NCBI GenBank assembly: GCA_021442845.1
Contig: JABUSD010000159.1
Location: 1-10,555 of the forward strand
DNA: 10,555 bases
Direction of reading: 5' to 3'
Origin: Holdemanella sp.
Lineage (GTDB): Bacteria; Bacillota_I; Bacilli_A; Erysipelotrichales; Erysipelotrichaceae
A model generated the notes under the pieces. The model was not told where the DNA came from, did not search any database, and saw only the letters and a list, made by a program, of their open reading frames with translations. A program made the translations under genes and the position numbers. Numbering within the stretch: the stretch's first letter is position 1; every line of letters starts with the position of its first letter. Positions 4,115 through 10,383 of the stretch are shown in pieces.

Positions 4115-5686
4115 TTAGGATGTTATATCCTTGTCAAAAGTCTTGATTAAATATTCTGCACATTTCAGCCCATCAATTGCACTTGTCATAATACCGCCTG
4201 CATATCCACTGCCTTCCCCTGAAGGATAAATGCCTGCAATATTCGACATGCATCCATCATCGCGATATATGCGGATAGAAGATGAACTCCTTGATTCAAC
4301 GGCGGTTAAGATAGCTCCTTCTGATACAAACCCAGGAACTTTTCTTTCATAATGCTCCAGGGCTTCATGCAAAGCAAGATTAACCTCTGTACTAAACAAG
4401 TTGTTTAAATCAACAAATACACTTCCCGTTTCTATTGTAGGCAATACATTTTCATATGCATCACTTATCGTATGGGATAAATAATCCTTTGCCAGCTGAC
4501 AAGCCCCTTTAAATCCACCTGCCATTTCATAGGCTTTCCTCTCCAATTGTTCCTGGTATTTTAATCCATCAAACAATTCCATTCCATAATCCGATTCATT
4601 CACCTGAACAAGCAAGGCGCTATTGGCATTGATACCATCACGTGCTGCATAGCTCATTCCATTAACAACAAGCTGTCCATTTTTAGAAGAGCTGTTGACT
4701 ACATATCCTCCTGGACACATGCAGAATGTATAGACACCCTTTTGGTTGGATGCCATGTAGGTTAACTGATATCTTGCTGGAATCAGTCTTTCATCATGAC
4801 AATATTCCTTTAACATGGCTCTATTGATATATTCCTGTGTATGTTCAATTCTTACTCCAACCGCAAATGGTTTATTCTCCATCTGCAATCCTTTATCATG
4901 CAGCATATGGATCGTATCGGTTGCACTATGTCCAATTCCTAAAATCATCGCATTGCATAATATTCTCTTACCATTTACAGTAATTGATTTCAATTCATTA
5001 TTCTCTACTTCAATATCCTCTAATTTTGAATCAAAATAGAATGTACCACCAAGTTCAACAATTTCTTTTCTTAAATTCTTTAATATTTTGACAAAGGAAT
5101 CTGTACCGATATGAGGGTGTGCATCTACAAGAATTTCTTCCTTTGCCCCAAAATGCACAAATTCCTCCAATACCTTTGTACAACGGCTATCCTTTGATCT
5201 TGTCGTGAGTTTTCCATCGCTAAAGGTTCCCGCTCCCCCTTCACCAAACTGCACATTGCATTCCTCATCTAACTTTTGTGTCTTCCAGAATGTATTCACC
5301 TTTTCCTGACGGATTTCTACATTGCTTCCTCTTTCAATAATTACTGGATTGTATCCATTGCGAGCAAGCAGCAGCGATGCGAACATACCAGCAGGGCCAA
5401 ATCCAGCCACTATTGGTCTAGCAAGCAATTTCTTATTGCCCATTTTGGGATTATGATACGTTTCATCTGGCTTTATAATGACATCCTTATCTTTTAGATA
5501 TTTTTTTTCATTTCGAACTTCACAATCAATGACATATGAAAATAAGACCTTTTGTTTACGAGCATCCACACTTTTTCTATGAATTGCCCATGATAAAAGA
5601 TCTTTTTTTGTTAATCTTAATTTTTTACACAAATGTGCCTCTATTTCATTTTCATGTGCACATTTTACCTGATACACTCGAATCAT
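4115..5686 (-). CDS. Uncharacterised FAD-dependent dehydrogenase (COG2509-type)
   Basis: A 523-residue flavoprotein of unknown substrate. An N-terminal region of about 85 residues (MIRVYQVKCA to KMGNK) precedes the dinucleotide-binding fold. The FAD-binding beta-alpha-beta has GFGPAG (95-100) and ends at the acidic IIERG (116-120). A conserved segment QFGEGGAGTFSDGKLTTR (146-163) follows, then ILGIGHSA (248-255), and a C-terminal FAD contact GIYPSGEGSGYAGGI close to the end. This architecture matches the broadly distributed but uncharacterised FAD-dependent dehydrogenase group related to BaiN/HI0933-like and geranylgeranyl-reductase-like flavoproteins. The ATG at 5686 lies four bases after the acyltransferase stop. 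I see no good ribosome binding site, so expression may rely on coupling, although the start agrees with the usual MIR-V opening of the family. The gene sits between the wall module and the ribosome module without an obvious link to either. Confidence 0.85.
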   Translation of the reverse strand: MIRVYQVKCAHENEIEAHLCKKLRLTKKDLLSWAIHRKSVDARKQKVLFSYVIDCEVRNEKKYLKDKDVIIKPDETYHNPKMGNKKLLARPIVAGFGPAGMFASLLLARNGYNPVIIERGSNVEIRQEKVNTFWKTQKLDEECNVQFGEGGAGTFSDGKLTTRSKDSRCTKVLEEFVHFGAKEEILVDAHPHIGTDSFVKILKNLRKEIVELGGTFYFDSKLEDIEVENNELKSITVNGKRILCNAMILGIGHSATDTIHMLHDKGLQMENKPFAVGVRIEHTQEYINRAMLKEYCHDERLIPARYQLTYMASNQKGVYTFCMCPGGYVVNSSSKNGQLVVNGMSYAARDGINANSALLVQVNESDYGMELFDGLKYQEQLERKAYEMAGGFKGACQLAKDYLSHTISDAYENVLPTIETGSVFVDLNNLFSTEVNLALHEALEHYERKVPGFVSEGAILTAVESRSSSSIRIYRDDGCMSNIAGIYPSGEGSGYAGGIMTSAIDGLKCAEYLIKTFDKDITS

Positions 5687-5690
5687 ACGC

Positions 5691-6707
5691 TTATAATAAA
5701 TGTTCTAAAATCGGGAATTGCTTCTTATTTGTAATTACAAGTGTTGCGAACAACTGTGATAAGGCTAACGTTATAAAATATACAACTAAATTAGCCCTAG
5801 GGAACAAATTAATCAAAACTTTCGCAAATAAAATATGCGACATATAGATTAATGATGCTTCTTTGTTTAGTTCTCTATATCTTTGCTTATCTGGGATATT
5901 CATAGAAAGAAGCCAATTCATCAAAAAGTAAACAGCAGGTATAAGGGTAATATACATACTTGTGATATCTCTTAGAATACCAAACAAACGATAAAGAGTT
6001 ACCTCTAATACAAGAAGTATAAAACTTACTAAAAAGCCTGATATAATCCATTGTTTCGGAAGCCTTCTGGTACGGGATAAAAGCAGTCCTATACCTATGA
6101 AGATTGGTCCAAAAAAGATACCGTTACGCGATGTAGCAAATGCCTTCATAAAGAATTCATAGATAAAGGATACAACAGGTACCTGCTCCCAGACTGGTCC
6201 ATATACATTGATAAAATAACCAATAATATATGCAATCAGACAGGTTTTCAATGTATTTAACAATCCAAACCGTTGATACATCATACTTACAAGTGGCATC
6301 GCAAGCATGATTGTAGGAAGTACCCACAAATGATAATAACTTCCATTCAACAGGAAATCACGCAGATACGATACAATACTCAACACGCTAAATCCTGCTT
6401 TCGCATAGTCCCAGATTGTATAAGGGAGATAAATCACAGTCCAGATAAGATATAATTTCAACACTCGCTTTTCAAAGCGAATCAGATTCCGCTTATTCAC
6501 CTCTGGATCTTCATCCCATTTTCTAAAGAAGAAAAAACCAGCAGACGCAAAGAAGAATGGAATCGCAAGACGACAGATCGTCTGAATCCAATATGTGTTC
6601 AATAGGGAAGAAATCTCAACAAGTGGAAATGTATGTACACATATAACAAGTAATACAGCTACATACTTAGCAATATCTATAGATACATATCTCTTCTTCC
6701 CTATCAT
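5691..6707 (-). CDS. Acyltransferase-3 family integral membrane protein, resembling the membrane half of VanT
   Basis: A 338-residue membrane protein with about ten hydrophobic segments (near 11-28, 45-62, 84-98, 123-143, 154-171, 197-212, 220-240, 250-267, 286-301 and 308-327). Acyltransferase-3 hallmarks are visible: DIAKYVAVLLVICVHTF with Asp11 and His25, CRLAIPFFFASAGFFFF with Arg46 and Pro50, and HLWVLP at 126-131. Members either O-acylate cell-surface polymers or, as the N-terminal domain of the VanT serine racemase, sit in front of a racemase and are proposed to help serine enter. Here the gene starts one base after the stop of the racemase gene, with AAGAGGGG as ribosome binding site inside the racemase's last codons, so the two are tightly coupled. 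The length equals one membrane domain with no racemase attached. The family is clear from sequence; the VanT resemblance is from memory and context, and a wall-polymer O-acetyltransferase remains possible. Confidence 0.85.
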   Translation of the reverse strand: MIGKKRYVSIDIAKYVAVLLVICVHTFPLVEISSLLNTYWIQTICRLAIPFFFASAGFFFFRKWDEDPEVNKRNLIRFEKRVLKLYLIWTVIYLPYTIWDYAKAGFSVLSIVSYLRDFLLNGSYYHLWVLPTIMLAMPLVSMMYQRFGLLNTLKTCLIAYIIGYFINVYGPVWEQVPVVSFIYEFFMKAFATSRNGIFFGPIFIGIGLLLSRTRRLPKQWIISGFLVSFILLVLEVTLYRLFGILRDITSMYITLIPAVYFLMNWLLSMNIPDKQRYRELNKEASLIYMSHILFAKVLINLFPRANLVVYFITLALSQLFATLVITNKKQFPILEHLL

Positions 6708-6708
6708 A

Positions 6709-7860
6709 CTAACCCCTCTTTTCTAAACGTGGTACACGTGCTGTAATCAAAGATAACGTCTCATAGTTGATTGTCTTTGACTTACGTGTGATTTCATCCA
6801 CTGTCACCACATTACCATTCTGTTTACCGATAATGCAGGCAACATCCCCTTCTTGTACATCCTCCACACCTGTAATATCAACCATGCACTGGTCCATACA
6901 GACATTTCCGATGATTGGGCATTTCACACCATGAATTAATACTTCCAACCCCTTGTTGGATACAAGGCGTGTCAGCCCATCTGCATACCCGATTGATAAT
7001 GTCGCAACCTTTGTTGGCTTTGTGACTGTATAATGTCTACCATAACTAACAGTCATACCTTCTCTTAGCCATTTCACCATAGACACATTGGCATAAAGCG
7101 ATAAGATCGGAATAAAATCAGGCTTGCTTAAAGTCTCTACGGAGTCATCGCTAGTAACTCCCATATATAATAGTCCTGCTCTACAGTAATCAAATTTCAA
7201 ATCACCATAATTCAGGATTCCGTAACTGTTTTGAAGATGACAAATACCAGGATTGATTCCTTCCTTTTCAAGATTGTTCAGCACTTCCTTGAACAACTGA
7301 ATCTGGTTCACTGTAAATGATTTTGATTCCTCATCTAATTCATCGCTTACAGGTAAATGTGAGAAAATACCTTCTACGCTCAGATTCTTTAAATGATATT
7401 CATCTATAATCTCTTTCATATCTTTCTGTTGTGACTGGTAGATGACACCTGTACGACACATACCTGTATCTACCTTGCAGTGACAACGAATCTTTATGTT
7501 GTTCTTTTTCGCATATGCATCCAGTTTACATGCATATGCATAAGAAACAAGCGATTGTACAATGTTTAATTCAGAAAGATAGTGGAAATGTTCCACTGGT
7601 GTATATCCAAGAATTAAAATATTTTCACAAATCCCTGCTTCTCTTAATTCTATTGCTTCATCGATAGAGCTGACACCAAAGAAATCAACACCACATTCAA
7701 CCAGCTTTCTTGTACATGCAACAGCTCCATGTCCATAGGCATTCGCCTTTACAATTGCCATAAGTTTTGTATTTCCGATAAGCTTATAGACTTCCTTGAC
7801 ATTATGTTCAATCGCATCATAATCGATTTCAGTCCAACAGCGACTATATGCCTCTAACAT
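6709..7860 (-). CDS. alr: PLP-dependent alanine/serine racemase (Alr family, VanT-like features)
   Basis: A 383-residue fold-III PLP racemase that supplies D-Ala, and possibly D-Ser, for peptidoglycan. The PLP lysine is Lys38 in IVKANAYGHGA (36-46). The second catalytic base is Tyr273 in VSYGRHY (271-277). Arg227 in YCRAGLLYMG contacts the PLP ring nitrogen, and the GNVCMDQCMVD segment (318-328) carries the Met of the active-site gate. Two places differ from common alanine racemases. The usual HLANSA reads HLQNSYGILNY (208-218), as I recall for VanT-type serine racemases. The residue I align with Tyr354 of the Geobacillus enzyme, which in VanT is Asn, is Ala374 in ITARVPR. The ATG at 7860 overlaps the ligase stop by seven bases, with AAAGGA ten bases upstream. 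As the only racemase seen here, it may still be the housekeeping Alr; which substrate it prefers cannot be read directly. Confidence 0.93.
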   Translation of the reverse strand: MLEAYSRCWTEIDYDAIEHNVKEVYKLIGNTKLMAIVKANAYGHGAVACTRKLVECGVDFFGVSSIDEAIELREAGICENILILGYTPVEHFHYLSELNIVQSLVSYAYACKLDAYAKKNNIKIRCHCKVDTGMCRTGVIYQSQQKDMKEIIDEYHLKNLSVEGIFSHLPVSDELDEESKSFTVNQIQLFKEVLNNLEKEGINPGICHLQNSYGILNYGDLKFDYCRAGLLYMGVTSDDSVETLSKPDFIPILSLYANVSMVKWLREGMTVSYGRHYTVTKPTKVATLSIGYADGLTRLVSNKGLEVLIHGVKCPIIGNVCMDQCMVDITGVEDVQEGDVACIIGKQNGNVVTVDEITRKSKTINYETLSLITARVPRLEKRG

Positions 7861-8903
7861 GCACTGATTGTCCTTTGAAGTGCTAATTCAACCAATCGAT
7901 CAATCAAATCCGGGAAATCAATTCCAATTGATTTCATCATAGAAGGATATCTTGAAGTTGCGGTAAATCCAGGAATCGTATTCAATTCGTTCAATACGAT
8001 TTCATTATCCTCTGTTAAGAACATATCCACACGAGCAAGTCCACAACAATTCATCGCAATATATGTCTTCTTTGCGAATACTCTTGCCTCCTGACGTTTT
8101 TCATCAGGAATTGATGAAGGACAATGAACAGAGGCTCCATTGTTTTCATATTTTCCTTCAAAATCATACATGTGGCCTGTAACACGAACTTCATCCACTT
8201 CTCCAGTAATGATGTCTTCATTTCCCATAACTGCACAACCGATTTCCAATCCTTTGATCATGCTTTCTACAAGAATCTTGCCTCTGCCATCATAATAGAA
8301 GGCATCTTCTATAGCTGGCATATAATCTGCTTCATTATCCACATAATGAACACCATAGCTGCTTCCTGCACTGCATGGCTTAATAAACCATGGAAGTGGA
8401 AGTGTTTGCTTCAATTCATCAAAGGAAGGAACAGTCTGTGTCTTTCGGATGCATACATACTTAGCACAAGGAATCCCTGCATTCTCACATAGGATATGGG
8501 TGATTTCCTTATCCATAGATGCTGCACTTGATAGAACATCACATCCGACATAGTGTATATTCATCAACTCAAACAATCCCTGGATACATCCATCCTCACC
8601 ATTCTTACCATGAAGAACAGGGAATACACAATCCAATGCGATTACTTCATTTGTTTTTCCAAGTTTAATAATCCCTTTATGCACCCATGCTGCAGGTGTA
8701 CTCTTTTCTTGCCATTGATCTTCTTCGATTTCTTCTATAGAAGCATCTGTAATATAGGTACGACCTGTTTTATCGATACCAATTAAAGTCATTTCGTATT
8801 TTTCAGTGCGGACCTGTCTAAGAACCGAACCAACAGAGTGAAGTGAAACAGAATATTCACTGCTTTGTCCACCAAAGACAATTCCTAATTTAATCTTGTC
8901 CAT
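7854..8903 (-). CDS. ddl: D-alanine:D-alanine (or D-serine) ligase, ATP-grasp family
   Basis: A 349-residue ATP-grasp ligase that makes the terminal D-Ala-D-X dipeptide of peptidoglycan. Key motifs are GIVFGGQSSEYSVS (7-20), HGKNGEDG (98-105), IKPCSAGSSYGV (174-185), the omega-loop EGKY (249-252), RVDMF (291-295, Asp293 for Mg) and NELNTIPGF (305-313). Tyr252 in the omega loop argues against a D-lactate ligase, where Phe or other residues occur. The following SRYPSMM (317-323) has Arg318 where ordinary Firmicute Ddl proteins read SMYP. This Arg is shared with VanC/VanG D-Ala:D-Ser ligases and aligns with VanC2 Arg322. The start at 8903 follows the murF stop by four bases, with AGGGAG encoded in murF's last codons. 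The stop overlaps the racemase start. The ligase family is certain; Ala versus Ser specificity is open. Confidence 0.95.
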   Translation of the reverse strand: MDKIKLGIVFGGQSSEYSVSLHSVGSVLRQVRTEKYEMTLIGIDKTGRTYITDASIEEIEEDQWQEKSTPAAWVHKGIIKLGKTNEVIALDCVFPVLHGKNGEDGCIQGLFELMNIHYVGCDVLSSAASMDKEITHILCENAGIPCAKYVCIRKTQTVPSFDELKQTLPLPWFIKPCSAGSSYGVHYVDNEADYMPAIEDAFYYDGRGKILVESMIKGLEIGCAVMGNEDIITGEVDEVRVTGHMYDFEGKYENNGASVHCPSSIPDEKRQEARVFAKKTYIAMNCCGLARVDMFLTEDNEIVLNELNTIPGFTATSRYPSMMKSIGIDFPDLIDRLVELALQRTISAC

Positions 8904-8907
8904 TTCT

Positions 8908-10266
8908 TTACATCTCCCTTAACATATTTACAATTTTATCCATAGCCATTGCACGGCTTCCCTTGACTAGAATGACACAATCCTGTTGAAGATAGTCCTT
9001 AACAGCTTCTACTATTTCTTCCTTTGTCTCAAACCATCTAGCTCCATCAAATGCTTTTGCCATATGCTTTGAAATTGGTCCTGTGCAATATAAAACATCA
9101 ACGCCATGTTCTTTGGCATAAGCACCCACATCATAATGAAGATCATCTTCCTCCGGTCCAAGTTCTAACATATCTGCAAGCAATGCAATATGTTTCTTTG
9201 CCGGTATCTTCATCAATGTATCAATCGCTGCCTTTGCGCTTTCTGGATTTGATTTATACGTATCATCTAAAATACGCGCTTTTTCAACAGAAATCAATGC
9301 TGTTCGCATTTTTGTGATTTCTAATTCTTTCAATCCTTTTAAAATAGATTCTTCTTTAATACCTTCATGGCGGGCAATATAGATAACCGGCAGACTATTC
9401 ATTGCCTGGAAATCACCAAATGCCTTCAAATAAACTCTATCCTGTAATAAAGAGGTCATAAAAGAAATGCCATCTTCCTCATAAGCGATATCTGAAGTAA
9501 TAGAGATATCACCACATTTTCCAAAGGAAGCAATAACCTTTGATGCATCAATTGTCATCTCTTTTAAACATTCTTTTAGTTCAGGACTTTCAATGTTGTA
9601 TAGGAATAATCCATTCTCTTTTAAGTTATCCAGAATTTCCAGTTTGGATTGAGCAATCTGCTTTTTTCCACCAAAGAATTCCATATGAGCAGTACCAATT
9701 GTTGTGATGACAGATATATCTGGTTGGGCAATGCTGCATAGGAAATCAATATCATGTTTATATTCCATACCCATCTCAAGAATGGCTACTTCAATGTCTT
9801 CATCAAAATCAAGAATTGTTAGTGGAAGACCCAATTCATTGTTTCGATTTCCTTGTGTCTTCTGTGTCTTTCTTTCCTGCGAGAATACACTATATAACAT
9901 ATCCTTACAGCTAGTCTTTCCATTGGATCCAGTAACCGCAATCACTTTGCAATCCAATGTAGCAAGATATGTTTTTGCTAATTCCTGTAATGCCTTTGCT
10001 GTATCTTTAACCAGAACACATACAATTCCTTCTGGATATGGTCTATGATCTTCCATCCACAAAGTAGCAGAAGCTCCCTTTTCAATAGCAGATTCAACAA
10101 AAGTATGTCCATCCACCCTTGTTCCAACCATTGGAATATATAACATATTTGGTGCAACCTGTCTTGAATCCATTGTCACACCACAGATTTTTTTATTTAC
10201 ATCGTCTAAATTTAAAATTTCAGCCTGTAGCATTTTAGCTACTTCAATAACGGTCTTTTCAATCAT
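8908..10266 (-). CDS. murF: UDP-N-acetylmuramoyl-tripeptide:D-alanyl-D-alanine ligase MurF
   Basis: A 452-residue Mur ligase that adds the D-Ala-D-X dipeptide to UDP-MurNAc-tripeptide in the cytoplasm, the last soluble step of the precursor. The N-terminal UDP-binding domain includes GVTMDSRQVAPNMLYIPM (29-46). The central ATPase domain has the P-loop TGSNGKTS (112-119), GNRNNELGLPLTIL (139-152) and LEMGMEYKHDI (163-173), with the lysine region IAQSKLEIL (204-212). The C-terminal domain begins near residue 320 and holds DDTYKSNPES (334-343), where most MurF proteins read DDTYNANP. The length is typical. The ATG at 10266 has GGGAG nine bases upstream and an extended -10 promoter just before that, making it the first gene of the operon. 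The ligase and racemase genes follow directly, so the whole D-dipeptide branch is co-expressed. Confidence 0.96.
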   Translation of the reverse strand: MIEKTVIEVAKMLQAEILNLDDVNKKICGVTMDSRQVAPNMLYIPMVGTRVDGHTFVESAIEKGASATLWMEDHRPYPEGIVCVLVKDTAKALQELAKTYLATLDCKVIAVTGSNGKTSCKDMLYSVFSQERKTQKTQGNRNNELGLPLTILDFDEDIEVAILEMGMEYKHDIDFLCSIAQPDISVITTIGTAHMEFFGGKKQIAQSKLEILDNLKENGLFLYNIESPELKECLKEMTIDASKVIASFGKCGDISITSDIAYEEDGISFMTSLLQDRVYLKAFGDFQAMNSLPVIYIARHEGIKEESILKGLKELEITKMRTALISVEKARILDDTYKSNPESAKAAIDTLMKIPAKKHIALLADMLELGPEEDDLHYDVGAYAKEHGVDVLYCTGPISKHMAKAFDGARWFETKEEIVEAVKDYLQQDCVILVKGSRAMAMDKIVNMLREM

Positions 10267-10291: not shown

Positions 10292-10300
10292 ATTATAGCA
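10292..10300 (-). promoter_or_regulatory. Extended -10 promoter for the murF operon
   Basis: On the minus strand TGCTATAAT gives a perfect -10 hexamer (TATAAT, 10292-10297) with the extended TGn element (10298-10300). The -35 position, about 17 bases upstream, reads ATTAAT and is weak, which fits an extended -10 promoter. Transcription would start near 10284. This is the only convincing promoter on this strand ahead of the eleven genes. Confidence 0.7.
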
Positions 10301-10318
10301 TAATAAAGCCGTTTATTA
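10301..10318. promoter_or_regulatory. Palindrome in the murF promoter spacer, possible operator
   Basis: TAATAAA and TTTATTA form a perfect 7-base inverted repeat around a 4-base centre (GCCG). It lies directly against the TG of the extended -10 and fills the -35/-10 spacer. A dimeric regulator bound here would overlap RNA polymerase. The palindrome is seen directly; regulation is inferred, and AT-rich sequence can produce such repeats by chance. Confidence 0.4.
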
Positions 10319-10383
10319 ATACAAGTTTCTATGCAAATATTATGCCTCTAACTCCCTGACCAAAGAGAATTATAACCAAATTA

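What the first reader, a model, noticed from the sequence alone, without database searches (positions are those of the whole stretch)
5691..10266. Possible built-in D-Ala-D-Ser wall-precursor module: murF, VanG-like ligase, VanT-like racemase and VanT-like membrane protein in one operon
Four adjacent, tightly coupled genes cover synthesis of a D-amino acid, its ligation to D-Ala and its addition to the precursor, plus a membrane protein of the type fused to VanT. Independent motif departures in ligase and racemase point the same way. Published work on Clostridium innocuum, which I believe is a relative, reported D-Ser-ending precursors and an adjacent ligase and racemase behind intrinsic low-level vancomycin resistance. 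If this holds, the genes are housekeeping in position (behind murF, no two-component regulators) yet resistance-type in specificity, and could be a chromosomal ancestor of mobile vanC/vanG clusters. An ordinary D-Ala-D-Ala pathway with unusual sequence remains possible.
Basis: partly seen in the sequence, partly recalled or inferred. Interest (0 to 1): 0.72.

Follow-up and report, generated by a model that had tools for sequence, protein, structure and literature searches.

The report
Resistance-type cell-wall operon, apparently switched back
This gut bacterium appears to build its cell wall with a ligase and a racemase of the kind linked to vancomycin resistance in other bacteria, but in this species the two residues best known to set their substrate choice have both changed to the ordinary, drug-sensitive type.

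Summary
The four genes are real and tightly coupled: murF, a D-Ala:D-X ligase of the VanG/VanA clade, a VanT-type racemase and a VanT-type membrane protein. The murF-ligase-racemase block recurs in 14 of 14 related loci. In the window's clade it holds the only ligase (25 of 25 genomes tested) and, in the window's genome, the only alanine-type racemase found. Relatives mostly carry the recalled D-Ser determinants: ligase Phe at the VanG Phe252 position and racemase Asn at the VanT Asn696 position; 116 of 137 paired loci are F/N. The window is the only Tyr/Tyr pair: ligase Tyr246 and racemase Tyr366, both D-Ala-type residues. Side result: Erysipelothrix, a genus with unexplained intrinsic vancomycin resistance, has a single ligase (10 of 10 genomes tested) and an F/N pair in 10 of 11 loci read, a directly testable explanation. 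Products were not measured.

The parts
8908..10266 (-). murF, UDP-MurNAc-tripeptide:D-alanyl-D-X ligase (452 aa)
   Evidence: (TIGR01143 392 bits, cut-off 288.6)
7854..8903 (-). D-Ala:D-X ligase of the VanG/VanA clade, sole ligase found in the genome (349 aa)
8193..8195 (-). ligase Asp237 codon (GAT), equivalent of VanG Asp243: Van-type state
   Evidence: the determinant role is recalled from the VanG structure paper
8166..8168 (-). ligase Tyr246 codon (TAT), equivalent of VanG Phe252 and of the Ddl Tyr: D-Ala-type state; Phe (D-F-R) in 116 of the best 119 homologues listed
7950..7952 (-). ligase Arg318 codon (AGA), equivalent of VanG Arg324: Van-type state
6709..7860 (-). VanT-type (serine/)alanine racemase, sole Ala_racemase_C protein found in the genome (383 aa)
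6763..6765 (-). racemase Tyr366 codon (TAT), equivalent of VanT-G Asn696 and Alr Tyr354: D-Ala-type state; Asn in 118 of the best 119 homologues listed
5691..6707 (-). Acyltransferase-3 family membrane protein like the N-terminal half of VanT (338 aa), encoded separately
10292..10319 (-). promoter-like site upstream of murF (TTAATA-16-TATAAT, TG before the second hexamer); consensus match only
   Evidence: such sites are no more frequent than in shuffles (32 found, 43.1 expected)

Best explanation
This is a chromosomal wall-precursor operon shared with a large part of the family. The racemase makes the D-amino acids, the ligase joins D-Ala to a second D-amino acid, and MurF adds the dipeptide to the UDP-MurNAc tripeptide. 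In most relatives the ligase/racemase pair has D-Ser-type residues (F/N), so the second residue should be D-Ser, with the same racemase also supplying D-Ala. In the window's clade the separate divergent Ddl of the next ring is absent, so this ligase is the only one. In the window's own species both specificity residues then changed to the D-Ala type, so the module most likely makes mainly D-Ala-D-Ala again. Shown: gene identity, order, clade, single-copy status, and the two substitutions against the family. Inferred: loss of the second Ddl, substrate, product and drug response.
For: Clade and sole-copy status. MurF-ligase-racemase order: (14 of 14 loci L008-L021; membrane gene in 12 of 14). 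F/N is the rule near the window: D-F-R in 116 of the best 119 ligase homologues listed, Asn in 118 of the best 119 racemase homologues listed, F/N in 116 of 137 paired loci. The window is the only Y/Y pair; its 79% sister proteins are F (P0002) and N (P0242), and two same-genus loci (L017, L212) are F/N. The window departs from near-invariant columns at 6 of 107 ligase and 3 of 114 racemase positions, and both determinants are among them; the chance of that by position alone is about 0.0015. All 18 stand-alone racemases have Tyr; three reference Ddls have Tyr (alignment strings). No Y/N pair occurs: 16 of 16 loci with ligase Tyr lack racemase Asn, over 4 ligase changes on the joint tree. The window's end branch is long in ligase (0.39 against 0.05-0.24) and membrane protein (0.43 against 0.08-0.31), not in MurF, FAD protein or YqeH (9 taxa).
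Against: Asp237 and Arg318 stay Van-type, and the membrane protein is intact. In the other three groups with ligase Tyr the racemase residue is D, S, H, I or L, not Tyr, so Tyr246 need not mean D-Ala. Five loci lost racemase Asn while keeping ligase Phe, so the sites are not strictly coupled. The sign test on 4 independent pairs gives p = 0.125 (racemase goes the same way in 3.7 of 4 on average). One solved alanine racemase (4y2w) has Gln, not Tyr, at the racemase site. 15 of 119 racemase rows depart from conserved columns as often as the window. The determinant roles are recalled from papers not held (the VanG paper was not found). No product was measured.
Confidence: 0.58

Rival explanations
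1. The module still makes D-Ala-D-Ser in this organism; the two tyrosines only tune activity.
For: D237, R318 and the membrane protein are retained; relatives are mostly D-F-R/N. Floccifex porci, the nearest named genus, has the type strain LKV-178-WT-2G, and LKV in that paper is a kanamycin-vancomycin agar (PMC7738495, passages; that the prefix names the isolation medium is my inference).
Against: Both recalled D-Ser determinants are lost at once, both to the residue of D-Ala enzymes.
Confidence: 0.25
2. The pair has moved to a mixed or different second residue (promiscuous D-Ala/D-Ser, or another D-amino acid).
For: Other lineages show further combinations (YYL/FYL ligases with D, S or H in the racemase), so the family's specificity is not fixed.
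Against: The Y/Y state in the window equals the usual Ddl/Alr state at both sites.
Confidence: 0.13
3. An ordinary D-Ala-D-Ala Ddl/Alr pathway that never had D-Ser specificity.
For: Single-copy, beside murF, no regulators in the window, no VanX match; general Alr and Ddl models are over cut-off.
Against: Both enzymes nest inside sets that are otherwise F (27 rows) and otherwise N except P0309 (29 rows); the Gly-Tyr-Met Ddls and the stand-alone Tyr racemases lie outside.
Confidence: 0.04

Closest known systems
VanG-type glycopeptide-resistance cluster (vanG, vanXY, vanT with regulators)
   Same: Ligase and racemase are nearest to VanG and VanT-G by profile and by solved structure; a VanT-type membrane protein is present.
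   Different: Beside murF, sole ligase, racemase and membrane parts separate and in reversed order, no VanXY or VanX found, no regulators in the window, below the curated Van cut-offs, and Tyr at both specificity sites.
Intrinsic D-Ser pathway of Clostridium innocuum (ligase and racemase genes)
   Same: Chromosomal; there two genes are held responsible for serine-ending precursors (PMC8888209, passages). Longicatena and Merdibacter loci carry the F/N version of this operon.
   Different: No C. innocuum sequence was compared. Longicatena- and Merdibacter-type genomes keep a separate Ddl; the window has one ligase and shows Y/Y. The primary paper (David et al. 2004) is not held.
VanL cluster with split VanTm and VanTr
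   Same: Membrane and racemase parts are encoded separately (NCBIfam has VanT-L membrane and catalytic models; gene order of vanL recalled).
   Different: Lower scores than to VanT-G (232.5 against 417.2 bits); here the racemase comes first.
Housekeeping Ddl plus Alr
   Same: Sole ligase and racemase, murF operon, Tyr at both sites.
   Different: Different clades; D237 and R318 in place of the Gly and Met of reference Ddls.

Membership tests
VanG-type D-Ala-D-Ser resistance cluster | Ligase inside the Van D-Ala:D-X clade | tested here: met
   105-row fork with VanA, VanB, VanM and VanG, SH-aLRT 100
VanG-type D-Ala-D-Ser resistance cluster | Curated VanG, D-Ser ligase and VanT score cut-offs | tested here: not met
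   389.6/495, 341.2/520, 417.2/460 and 129/900 bits
VanG-type D-Ala-D-Ser resistance cluster | Ligase determinants Asp243, Phe252, Arg324 (recalled) | tested here: not met
   Asp and Arg present, Phe replaced by Tyr246
VanG-type D-Ala-D-Ser resistance cluster | Racemase Asn696 (recalled) | tested here: not met
   Tyr366 in the window; Asn in 118 of the best 119 homologues listed
VanG-type D-Ala-D-Ser resistance cluster | VanX or VanXY removing D-Ala-D-Ala | tested here: not met
   No PF01427 match; five PF02557 proteins, each with a hydrophobic or signal-like N-terminus read by eye; genome 90.4% complete
VanG-type D-Ala-D-Ser resistance cluster | VanRS-type regulators next to the cluster | tested here: not met
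   None among the annotated genes of the 10.5-kb window; the wider genome was not searched for them
Intrinsic D-Ser pathway (C. innocuum kind) | Chromosomal ligase and racemase in tandem | tested here: met
Intrinsic D-Ser pathway (C. innocuum kind) | UDP-MurNAc-pentapeptide ending in D-Ser | not testable with these tools
   needs mass spectrometry
Ordinary Ddl/Alr pathway | Ligase and racemase in the D-Ala-D-Ala Ddl and Alr clades | tested here: not met
Ordinary Ddl/Alr pathway | Only ligase and only alanine-type racemase of the cell | tested here: met
   90.4%-complete genome
Ordinary Ddl/Alr pathway | Tyr at the Ddl Tyr210 and Alr Tyr354 positions (numbering recalled) | tested here: met

The most novel reading that the evidence does not exclude
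A sizeable part of Erysipelotrichaceae, Erysipelothrix included, uses D-Ala-D-Ser as its standard and, in the sole-ligase clades, only wall-precursor ending, made by a murF-linked ligase/racemase pair. This would explain the unexplained intrinsic vancomycin resistance of Erysipelothrix. The window would then be a natural case in which a lineage locked into a resistance-type wall switched both enzymes back to D-Ala-D-Ala.
Probability: 0.42. Interest if true: 0.82.

Novelty: new variant of a known kind. Interest (0 to 1): 0.66.

Why it matters
Van clusters are usually seen as acquired add-ons to a D-Ala-D-Ala wall. Here a Van-type ligase/racemase pair appears to be the wall pathway itself, with a single ligase behind murF, in a clade of mostly gut commensals and in Erysipelothrix. 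If products match the residues, this gives a simple cause for intrinsic vancomycin resistance in Erysipelothrix, which the one paper found treats as unsettled (PMC9637936, passages). It may also help explain why some Erysipelotrichaceae persist under vancomycin. The window would add a paired, same-lineage switch of two specificity residues, useful for working out how the D-Ser/D-Ala choice evolves. Most named entries are labelled 'D-alanine--D-alanine ligase' and 'alanine racemase', so the trait is easily missed; JGI, however, already labels four of the listed ligases 'D-alanine---D-serine ligase' (P0039, P0048, P0082, P0104) and two of the racemases 'serine/alanine racemase' (P0283, P0293).

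Tried and rejected
VanC/VanE/VanL/VanN sequences were not fetched; comparison with them rests on NCBIfam scores. The C. innocuum mechanism paper and the VanT structure paper are not held and the VanG structure paper did not appear; the VanG Asp243/Phe252/Arg324 and VanT-G Asn696/Alr Tyr354 assignments are recalled. A VanC2 paper was searched for residue names and does not mention them. Direction of descent between this operon and mobile van clusters: forks not firm, left open. My first notebook entry numbered the ligase Tyr as 245, and one search printed that neighbouring column as the middle letter; corrected to 246 and later. Pairing P0002 with P0242 as one organism is an assumption from their equal 79% identity. 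Structure prediction was not used; its description promises no coordinates to measure. P0309, the one other Tyr racemase, has an unlike C-terminus and its ligase is unknown, so it was not counted as a second double switch; the racemase partners of P0068 and P0109 (ligase Tyr) are also unknown. Contrary phenotype: Merdibacter massiliensis, whose locus is F/N with a second Ddl, is reported vancomycin-susceptible and teicoplanin-resistant (PMC6538751, passage). The Ileibacterium paper allows other causes for replication during vancomycin exposure (PMC9980609, passages). On what is in print: my searches for the Erysipelothrix mechanism were made, and for D-Ser pathways in the family, in open-licence PMC only; most hits were seen as listings.
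Full report
What is there. The window holds eleven minus-strand ORFs of at least 80 aa, in a nearly gapless run. The four in question are murF (8908-10266), ligase (7854-8903), racemase (6709-7860) and membrane protein (5691-6707), with a gap of 4 nt, an overlap of 7 nt, and a gap of 1 nt. Downstream follow an FAD-dependent protein, YqeH, a YhbY-like protein, a NadD-like protein and others, an ordinary housekeeping run (the YhbY and NadD names are by eye and recall). No tRNA and no Rfam match at the gathering score was found.

Family assignment. The ligase scores best to VanG (389.6 bits), then a generic D-Ala-D-Ala ligase model (366.1, over its cut-off of 262). The racemase scores best to VanT-G catalytic (417.2), then Alr (321.4, cut-off 168). 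The membrane protein matches the membrane half of VanT (129 bits) and Pfam Acyltransferase 3. None of the Van models listed reaches its curated cut-off. The nearest solved chains by sequence are 4fu0 and 4ecl (4fu0 is VanG by recall, deposited as D-alanine--D-alanine ligase 7). The role of the membrane half of VanT is unknown; L-Ser transport is a proposal (PMC9558356, passages).

Gene number. The window's genome is 90.4% complete, in 430 contigs. It has one ligase hit, one Ala_racemase_C hit, no VanX-family hit and five VanY-family proteins, each with a hydrophobic or signal-like N-terminus by eye. Pfam PF07478 was run on 46 genomes that I chose. I counted matches at E below 1e-30; the next best match is 2.8e-14, and the weaker ones are mostly in frames of about 455 or 1,070 aa, taken from size to be other ATP-grasp enzymes. 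This gave one ligase in 25 of 25 genomes around the window (G246 and G248 of these are not in the ligase tree), two in 11 of 11 of the next ring (Merdibacter-, Longicatena- and Traorella-type among them), and one in 10 of 10 Erysipelothrix-genus genomes. Erysipelothrix-genus genomes left out were G226 and G227, and G078, which had no ligase hit. The second ligase of the next ring is a divergent Ddl at about 28-35% identity.

How widespread. A ligase of this kind (E at most 1e-50) is in 109 of 272 genomes of the family, 68 of 152 of the better ones; some of these are van-type clusters, not the murF operon. So it is a large part of the family, not all of it. Many members have only the divergent Ddl. 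The genome-contig scan gave 80 loci, of which 14 (L008-L021) are the Erysipelotrichaceae set: 12 placed in that family by title and 2 (L009, L010) titled only Bacillota but falling beside the window in the trees. All 14 have MurF-ligase-racemase in that order; 12 of 14 also have the membrane gene (not L018, L020). In the other 66 loci the ligase is 40-45% identical and is often followed by membrane and racemase parts in the VanT order.

Trees. In the ligase tree (126 rows I selected, quick IQ-TREE) the Van-type ligases form a 105-row fork with support 100, containing VanA, VanB, VanM and VanG, the Erysipelotrichaceae operon ligases and the Erysipelothrix ligases. The Gly-Tyr-Met Ddls lie outside. 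The window pairs with P0002 (100) inside a 27-row set (99). In the racemase tree (120 rows) the window pairs with P0242 (99) inside a 29-row set (100); 18 stand-alone racemases, used as outgroup, are separate. Which of chromosomal operon and mobile cluster came first is not resolved.

Specificity sites. VanG Asp243, Phe252 and Arg324 and VanT-G Asn696 (Alr Tyr354) are recalled as determinants. In the best 119 ligase homologues listed (of 5,369 hits) 116 are D-F-R; the exceptions are P0029 (gap), P0068 (D-Y-R) and P0109 (D-Y-H). In the best 119 racemase homologues listed (of 5,469 hits) 118 have Asn and one, P0309, has Tyr in an unlike C-terminus. The window has D237, Y246, R318 and racemase Y366. 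The sister proteins P0002 and P0242 have F and N. Stand-alone racemases have Tyr in 18 of 18, but the solved alanine racemase 4y2w has Gln. Reference Ddls have Gly, Tyr, Met.

Paired loci. After removing copies with identical ligase segments and loci with a gap at either site, 137 ligase/racemase pairs remain: F/N 116; F with other 5 (P 2, Y 1, I 1, V 1); Y with other 16 (S 6, D 4, I 3, L 1, H 1, Y 1); Y/N none. The ligase site changed 4 times and the racemase site 7 times on the joint tree. In 4 independent pairs the racemase goes the same way in 3.7 on average and never the other way; the sign test cannot reach significance with 4 pairs (p = 0.125). The window is the only Y/Y. Among murF-linked loci with Asp at the first site, 67 are D-F-R with Asn, one is D-F-R with Tyr (L138), one is D-F-gap with Asn (L223), one is D-F-R with no readable racemase residue (L256), and the window is D-Y-R with Tyr.

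Is it chance? The window departs from columns at least 95% conserved at 6 of 107 (ligase) and 3 of 114 (racemase) positions, and both determinants are among them. By position alone that is about 0.0015; two of the ligase departures are shared with P0002. Fifteen of 119 racemase rows and 2 of 119 ligase rows depart as often. The ligase residues checked (17 positions, chosen as catalytic or conserved by recall) match VanG except one that differs in the family as a whole. The window's end branch is long in ligase and membrane protein, just above the others in racemase, and within range in MurF, FAD protein and YqeH (FastTree on 9 taxa). The protein cluster is listed on three contigs (P0001), which argues against a one-assembly error.

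Mechanism. In known systems MurF is broad enough to take the modified dipeptide, and VanX/VanXY removes D-Ala-D-Ala made by the normal pathway (PMC8541618, passages). With a single ligase I infer that no VanX is needed. A single racemase must at least supply D-Ala; that review calls VanT a serine/alanine racemase. So in F/N sole-ligase relatives I infer D-Ser-ending precursors, perhaps mixed. In the window I infer a return to mainly D-Ala-D-Ala.

Phenotype hints. C. innocuum resistance is ascribed to two chromosomal genes giving serine-ending precursors, MIC 4-16 mg/L (PMC8888209, passages). E. rhusiopathiae had MIC 32 mg/L in one report, which suggests a presumptive vex23-vncRS locus, also mentions its unusual stem peptide, and reads murF as meaning D-Ala-D-Ala (PMC9637936, passages). 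In Erysipelothrix-genus loci the murF-linked pair is D-F-R/N in 10 of 11 loci read, C-A-L in the other, L260. Of 64 Erysipelothrix-like ligases (P0121-P0184) 47 are D-F-R; named ones include E. anatis, E. urinaevulpis and HDW6C (D-F-R), while E. larvae is V-F-F. Eight of eight Erysipelothrix-genus genomes have two racemases. I could not name an E. rhusiopathiae sequence. Five pig Erysipelotrichaceae each carry one vancomycin-resistance-related gene (PMC8063399, passage). Floccifex porci's strain prefix LKV matches a vancomycin agar (PMC7738495, passages; inference). Ileibacterium dominated the replicating fraction during vancomycin exposure (PMC9980609, passages). Against: Merdibacter massiliensis is reported susceptible (PMC6538751, passage).

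Verdict. Real, conserved and informative.

Noticed in passing
L140, L201, L202, L251-L254, L257-L259 (Erysipelothrix-genus genomes): The murF-linked ligase is D-F-R and the adjacent racemase has Asn, a D-Ser-type pair; the one second racemase read (L194) is Tyr-type. Candidate cause of intrinsic vancomycin resistance in this genus.
   Followed up: partly
L137, L139, L238, L239, L243, L246, L247, L249, L250, L255 (genera g2, g41): murF-linked ligases with Y/F-Y-L at the three sites and racemases with Asp, Ser or His at the Asn696 position: a combination unlike both D-Ala and D-Ser enzymes.
   Followed up: no
P0167, P0170-P0184, L260: Ligases near Erysipelothrix with x-A-L (or V-F-F, V-L-F) at the three sites; second-residue specificity unknown.
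   Followed up: no
L138 2422-4827, L144 1805-4189, L019 6687-9038; ligase frames of 785-814 aa also in G119, G121, G220, G244, G245, G246: MurF and ligase in one open frame (seen for the three loci, inferred from frame length for the rest); L138 also pairs a D-F-R ligase with a Tyr racemase.
   Followed up: no
G041, G062, G078, G086: Four of 118 genomes of the order, 97-99% complete, gave no ligase match; G041 and G062 also gave no racemase match. Wall-less or missed.
   Followed up: no
P0309: A racemase close to the L172 type whose last stretch reads like an ordinary Alr (IPYE), possibly a recombinant.
   Followed up: no
window 4115-5686: FAD-dependent protein (PF21688) of unclear function, found downstream of the operon in 11 of the 14 related loci L008-L021.
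   Followed up: no
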